64,000 nt of DNA from Calditrichia bacterium (GTDB taxonomy: Bacteria; Calditrichota; Calditrichia; RBG-13-44-9; J075): positions 1 through 64,000 of the forward strand of contig JANQQU010000028.1 of the NCBI GenBank assembly GCA_028284905.1. The letters run 5' to 3'. Position 1 is the first letter of the stretch, and every line of letters starts with the position of its first letter. The position numbers and the translations under genes are program-made. Under the pieces are notes generated by a model. It worked only from the letters and a program-made list of their open reading frames with translations. It was not told the origin of the DNA and made no database searches. Positions 60,620 through 61,303 of this stretch are shown here, in pieces.

Positions 60620-61303
60620 ATGCGAAACGCTCTCACTGCAAATGCAAAAACTGGTAAAATTCCCGCATTAGATAAAAATATTCCCGGCAAACTGGAAACA
60701 GCAACCTTTGGCCTGGGATGATTCTGGGGACCCGACTCCCGGTTCGGGAGTTTTGATGGTGTCTACAGAACCCGTGTCGGTTACAGTGGTGGCCGGAAGA
60801 AAAATCCGACCTACTACGAACTTGATGATCACACCGAAACTTTTCAGGTAGACTTTGATCCGGCGGTGATATCCTATCGGGATTTGCTGGAGGTATTCTG
60901 GAAGAGCCACAAAGGCACTGATCGTGCCTGGTCTCGTCAATATATGCCGGTGCTTTTTTACGAGAATGCCGGGCAGCAGGAAATCGCTGAAGCAAGCAAG
61001 GCTGAATTGGAGGCCGATTACGGACGTCCGGTGGTAACGCCTTTATTGCCGCTGGAAAAATTTTATTTGGCGGAGGAATATCATCAAAAGTATCGTATGC
61101 AGAACTTAAGCGAGATCATGCAGGAATTTAAGATGATCTACCCGAAAGGGCTCGATTGGGTGCATTCGCCGGCTGCGACTAAAATAAATGGCTTTGCCGG
61201 CCGGAATGGTTCAGTAGATGGTTTCACTGCGATCTCCGAGCAATTGGGACTTTCCGATGCTTCGAAGCGAAGATTGCAGGAAATTCTTCAGCGAAGATGG
61301 TAA
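60620..61303 (+). CDS. msrA: Peptide methionine sulfoxide reductase MsrA, probable selenoprotein (in-frame TGA at 60719-60721 = catalytic residue)
   Basis: Continuous frame ...KLETATFGLG-[TGA]-FWGPDSRFGSFDGVYRTRVGYSGGRKKNPTYYELDDHTETFQVDFDP...; TGA replaces Cys of GCFWG; ATG 60620 preceded by ggaaagga. Supplied ORF fragments 60521-60721 and 60866-61303 are in the same frame. Confidence 0.88.
60735..60751 (+). promoter_or_regulatory. Putative bacterial SECIS hairpin in msrA
   Basis: ACTCCCG-GTT-CGGGAGT, 7-bp perfect stem with G-first apical loop, starting 13 nt after the TGA. Confidence 0.6.

What the first reader, a model, noticed from the sequence alone, without database searches (positions are those of the whole stretch)
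60620..61303. Selenocysteine MsrA: in-frame TGA exactly at the catalytic Cys, with SECIS-like hairpin
Seen in sequence: two ORF fragments (60521-60721 and 60866-61303) share one frame, and translation across TGA 60719-60721 gives LETATFGLG-U-FWGPDSRFGSFDGVYRTRVGYSGG, an intact MsrA. The only interruption is at the nucleophile of the family motif GCFWG. A perfect 7-bp hairpin (60735-60751, ACTCCCG GTT CGGGAGT) with a loop starting with G begins 13 nt after the TGA, as expected for SelB-dependent bacterial SECIS elements. Other genes in the window end with TGA (e.g. 2460), so global recoding of TGA is unlikely. Established knowledge: Sec-containing MsrA exists but is rare in bacteria. Inference: this organism decodes Sec, and standard annotation will miss or split this gene.
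Basis: partly seen in the sequence, partly recalled or inferred. Interest (0 to 1): 0.92.

Follow-up and report, generated by a model that had tools for sequence, protein, structure and literature searches.

The report
Selenocysteine-containing methionine sulfoxide reductase MsrA
This bacterial gene looks broken by a stop codon, but the stop is almost certainly read as the rare amino acid selenocysteine at the enzyme's active site, making a protein-repair enzyme of a kind already known from a few other bacteria.

Summary
Window 60620-61303 encodes a 227-residue MsrA with one in-frame TGA (60719-60721) exactly at the catalytic position (GUFWG). The genome holds a complete selenocysteine (Sec) apparatus: tRNA-Sec(UCA), SelB with C-terminal winged helices, SelA (split over two contig ends sharing an exact 99-base overlap) and SelD, itself Sec-coding. 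TGA occupies the same codon in seven homologous genes from six other genomes; counting the window's genome these span three phyla, and all seven genomes have tRNA-Sec. A hairpin at a fixed place after the TGA is kept in all eight genes (5-7 of 7 pairs, with compensatory changes) and in none of 104 Cys homologues (at most 4 of 7). Sequencing error, pseudogene and genome-wide TGA recoding are thereby very unlikely. Sequence, predicted fold and absence of any Cys place it with the crystallised 1-Cys-type selenoprotein MsrA of Clostridium oremlandii (4LWJ): a new member of a known kind. Two loose ends: no glutaredoxin, the known reductant of the C. oremlandii enzyme, was found in this genome, so what recycles this one is open; and one relative's hairpin lacks the consensus loop G. 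Expression and Sec insertion remain untested.

The parts
60605..60614 (+). Shine-Dalgarno-like purine stretch upstream of the ATG
   Evidence: sequence GGAAAGGAAATACGATATG read directly
60620..61303 (+). msrA coding sequence, ATG to TAA, 227 residues with Sec34, no Cys
   Evidence: translation with TGA=U; Pfam PMSR E=5e-40, TIGR00401 above cut-off
60719..60721 (+). in-frame TGA read as selenocysteine, at the catalytic position of GCFWG
   Evidence: same codon is TGA in seven other genes
60735..60751 (+). SECIS hairpin: 7-bp stem, loop GUU
   Evidence: folding, covariation, absent from 104 Cys homologues
61115..61300 (+). C-terminal helical domain (about residue 166 on), as in C. oremlandii MsrA
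   Evidence: AlphaFold2 model, mean pLDDT 92, best PDB match 4LWJ over 200 columns

Best explanation
The gene encodes a 1-Cys-type (here '1-Sec') selenoprotein methionine-S-sulfoxide reductase. During translation the hairpin just downstream of the UGA recruits SelB with Sec-tRNA-Sec, so the UGA at residue 34 is read as selenocysteine. The selenol attacks methionine-S-sulfoxide, releasing methionine and leaving a selenenic acid; since the protein has no Cys at all, regeneration must come from another molecule: an external thiol reductant, or a diselenide dimer that such a reductant then resolves. Shown here by sequence: frame, TGA position, hairpin with covariation, Sec machinery, conservation of TGA, predicted fold. 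Inferred from the C. oremlandii enzyme: catalytic cycle and advantage of Sec. Unknown: the reductant.
For: Intact MsrA in one frame with TGA at the nucleophile. Own genome: tRNA-Sec 73 bits, anticodon UCA; SelB 349.5 bits with SelB-wing_2 and wing_3 domains; SelA 531.6 bits for the larger piece, missing N-terminus on a contig end with an exact 99-base overlap; SelD 388.6 bits with its own Sec TGA; a ResA-like protein with motif WUPFC and an 8-bp hairpin with loop GGC. TGA at the same codon in G003, G056, G074, G108 (two genes), G109, G110, all with tRNA-Sec. SECIS stem: 89% of cells paired, three pairs with compensatory changes, far above slid controls; all 8 Sec genes have 5-7 of 7 pairs, all 104 Cys homologues at most 4 (rank test p=6e-7). 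Spacing, stem and loop fit the bSECIS model. Closest solved structures by sequence and fold are C. oremlandii Sec-MsrA.
Against: No expression, proteomic or 75Se data. The hairpin lies over a conserved peptide, so part of its conservation is coding constraint: overall folding energy against synonymous codon choices is only weakly better in Sec genes (p=0.08), and for this gene the stem is reached by 1.2% of synonymous versions. The genomes are draft assemblies and reads were not available. The related genes are not shown to be independent origins.
Confidence: 0.96

Rival explanations
1. Pseudogene: a Cys codon mutated to a nonsense codon, or a sequencing/assembly error at that base.
For: TGC/TGT to TGA is a single change; the genome has three intact Cys-MsrA paralogues that could cover the function.
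Against: TGA at the same codon in seven further genes at 41-46% protein identity, in three phyla counting the window's own; no other defect in 227 codons; hairpin conserved only in TGA genes; full Sec apparatus.
Confidence: 0.02
2. TGA is read by another route, such as genome-wide recoding (TGA=Trp) or near-cognate read-through.
For: An in-frame TGA is present.
Against: TGA ends 8 of 54 closed predicted ORFs in the window, and only this gene is interrupted by it; the position is an invariant nucleophilic Cys, not Trp; tRNA-Sec with UCA anticodon is present.
Confidence: 0.01
3. Sec is inserted, but the hairpin is just coding sequence for the conserved peptide and not the SECIS element.
For: Most of the stem encodes D-S/T-R/Q-F-G-S; for GC-rich relatives synonymous versions often fold as well; the hairpin of L028 lacks the consensus loop G.
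Against: Compensatory changes at three pairs; Cys homologues with similar peptides never reach more than 4 pairs; position matches the bSECIS model.
Confidence: 0.04

Closest known systems
Clostridium oremlandii selenoprotein MsrA (CoMsrA; PDB 4LWJ, 4LWK, 4LWM, 4U66)
   Same: Sec at the catalytic position of GUFWG, no Cys elsewhere (1-Cys type), C-terminal helical domain, about 42% identity over 200 residues
   Different: Another lineage; CoMsrA is reduced by glutaredoxin and not thioredoxin, but no glutaredoxin (PF00462) was found in this genome
Sec-MsrA genes listed in earlier selenoproteome surveys (Syntrophobacter fumaroxidans; 9 in the Global Ocean Sampling set)
   Same: MsrA with Sec at the active site
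   Different: Those sequences were not compared here; lineage differs
Cys homologues with the same C-terminal part: haloarchaea, Halanaerobium, Microcoleus, Kosmotogales, G104
   Same: Same extended MsrA architecture and conserved residues
   Different: Cys in place of Sec and no hairpin after it

Membership tests
MsrA (PF01625 / TIGR00401) | profile match above curated cut-off | tested here: met
   137.6 bits (cut-off 23.7) and 124.8 bits (cut-off 108.1)
Bacterial selenoprotein | in-frame TGA at a catalytic Cys position, Sec/Cys pairs among homologues | tested here: met
Bacterial selenoprotein | selA, selB, selC, selD in the genome | tested here: met
Bacterial selenoprotein | SECIS: 4-16 bp stem, 3-9 nt loop with G in first two positions, 16-37 nt from TGA | tested here: met
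   7 bp, loop GUU, 20 nt; model from PMC13188914
Bacterial selenoprotein | selenium actually present in the protein | not testable with these tools
   needs 75Se labelling or mass spectrometry
CoMsrA-type 1-Cys selenoprotein MsrA | no resolving Cys | tested here: met
   0 Cys in 227 residues
CoMsrA-type 1-Cys selenoprotein MsrA | C-terminal helical domain | tested here: met
   helices 158-224 in the model, best match 4LWJ with TM 0.80/0.88
CoMsrA-type 1-Cys selenoprotein MsrA | recycling by glutaredoxin | tested here: inconclusive
   no PF00462 match in the genome, 11 thioredoxin-like matches; biochemistry not testable

The most novel reading that the evidence does not exclude
A Sec-MsrA without any resolving thiol works in an organism without glutaredoxin, so it is recycled by a different reductant, for example thioredoxin (the reductant CoMsrA does not accept) or another thioredoxin-fold protein.
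Probability: 0.35. Interest if true: 0.45.

Novelty: new member of a known kind. Interest (0 to 1): 0.33.

Why it matters
It adds a well-supported selenoprotein gene that ordinary ORF calling splits (fragments 60521-60721 and 60866-61303), and a set of eight related genes in which Sec and its RNA signal occur together, against 104 Cys homologues without the signal. This gives a clean natural comparison for how the SECIS requirement shapes protein sequence (PDS..FGS in most Sec genes, mostly PDA..FGA in Cys genes of the same type). The apparent absence of glutaredoxin makes the recycling of 1-Cys-type MsrA a testable question here.

Tried and rejected
Overall folding energy against synonymous sequences as a SECIS test: weak (p=0.08), replaced by pairing at the fixed place. 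Rfam scan of the window: nothing at gathering score. tRNA scan of the window: none; selC lies on another contig. Tree of Sec and Cys forms: deep forks open, so one or several origins of Sec cannot be told apart. Selenoprotein formate dehydrogenase: nine molybdopterin matches, no internal TGA, though the profile may not cover the Sec position. The original CoMsrA selenoproteome paper is not held.

Full report
What is there. From ATG 60620 to TAA 61303 there is a 684-base frame with a single in-frame TGA at 60719-60721. Read through, it gives 227 residues with Sec at position 34 in GUFWG and no cysteine. The protein matches Pfam PMSR (137.6 bits) and TIGR00401 MsrA (124.8 bits, cut-off 108.1). 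A perfect 7-bp hairpin with loop GUU lies 13 nt after the TGA; the first 52 nt fold to -22.7 kcal/mol, 2.9 SD below shuffles. Only 0.7% of TGA triplets in the window have such a hairpin. No other gene in the window is interrupted by TGA, and TGA ends 8 of 54 closed predicted ORFs.

The genome decodes Sec. In the 8.55-Mb assembly (100% complete by the tool's estimate) there is a tRNA-Sec with UCA anticodon, SelB with GTPase, beta-barrel and two C-terminal winged-helix domains, and SelA directly upstream of SelB. The first part of SelA lies at the end of another contig, and the two contig ends share an exact 99-base overlap, so this is an assembly break, not a defect. SelD has an in-frame TGA in the motif TCAGUASK, which I place (from memory of the E. 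coli protein) at its Cys17, followed by a small hairpin AGGTC-CGGGT-GACCT. A further gene, ResA-like, has WUPFC and an 8-bp hairpin with loop GGC. So at least three genes of this genome show the selenoprotein signature.

Conservation. Among 99 genomes of varying kinship, three besides the window's own gave strong matches to P0001 with a TGA inside the frame, and widening around two of these brought four more genes. In all seven the TGA is at the same GUFW codon. They come from one genome of the same family and from two further groups that the tool treats as separate phyla; identities are 41-46%. All these genomes have tRNA-Sec. Cys homologues of the same extended type occur in haloarchaea, Halanaerobium, Microcoleus and Kosmotogales and in G104, of the same phylum as Sec-bearing G074.

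The hairpin as SECIS. On the alignment of eight Sec genes the 7-pair stem forms in 89% of cells; pairs 18-32, 19-31 and 23-27 change on both sides in some genes with pairing kept; slides of one to three columns give 23-59%. RNAalifold finds the same helix unaided. At the same place relative to the Sec/Cys codon, Sec genes have 5, 6 or 7 of 7 pairs, 104 Cys homologues 0-4. [quoted passage not shown] the window's hairpin meets all. Caution: the stem lies over a conserved peptide, and a cruder energy test was only suggestive. In the relative L028 the loop is AATTT (or ATT with the A-U pair closed) and lacks the G; this is unexplained.

What kind of MsrA. By sequence and by predicted structure (mean pLDDT 92) the nearest solved proteins are the selenoprotein MsrA of Clostridium oremlandii: Foldseek E 1e-20, TM 0.80/0.88, about 42% identity over 200 columns, covering its special C-terminal helical domain. 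That enzyme contains only Sec, is 20 times more active than its Cys form, needs the helical domain (PMC4333827), dimerises during catalysis and is reduced by glutaredoxin but not thioredoxin (PMC4479559). The window protein shares the lack of Cys and the helical domain. No glutaredoxin-family match was found in its genome, although the same search rang in 13 of 14 control genomes; thioredoxins are present. The reductant is therefore an open point; a divergent glutaredoxin missed by the profile is possible.

Novelty. Sec-MsrA is a recognised bacterial selenoprotein family: a 2026 review gives its GUFWG/H motif, and it was listed in Syntrophobacter fumaroxidans and in marine metagenomes. The finding is a new, well-supported member. 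Whether Sec arose once or several times in this branch is not resolved.

Untested: expression, selenium content, activity, reads.

Noticed in passing
L184 1531-1533 (own genome, C83 near 6862-7017): ResA-like thioredoxin-fold protein with in-frame TGA in the motif AASW-U-PFC and hairpin AATGCGGA-GGC-TCCGCATT after it: a probable second redox selenoprotein.
   Followed up: partly
L023 (own genome, C21:22816-23739, minus strand): selD itself has an in-frame TGA (TCAGUASK), followed by hairpin AGGTC-CGGGT-GACCT.
   Followed up: partly
own genome G000: No glutaredoxin (PF00462) match, although the best-studied homologue of this MsrA is recycled by glutaredoxin.
   Followed up: no
L028 1684-1752 (genome G003): Sec-MsrA of the nearest relative has the stem but a loop AATTT without the consensus G of bacterial SECIS elements.
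   Followed up: no
L140 and L141 (genome G108): Two Sec-MsrA genes in one genome, with GUFWGVE instead of GUFWGPD and compensatory changes in the hairpin.
   Followed up: partly
L009, L010, L011 (own genome): Three further MsrA paralogues with Cys; L009 and L010 have the motif GCFWC with a second Cys three residues on.
   Followed up: no
L029, L030, L138, L139: Several Sec-MsrA relatives have an N-terminal hydrophobic stretch that suggests export; the window protein does not.
   Followed up: no
window 58681-60492 and 61411-62103: Neighbours are an M61 aminopeptidase with PDZ domain and an SRAP (SOS response-associated) protein; this order is not kept in L028.
   Followed up: partly
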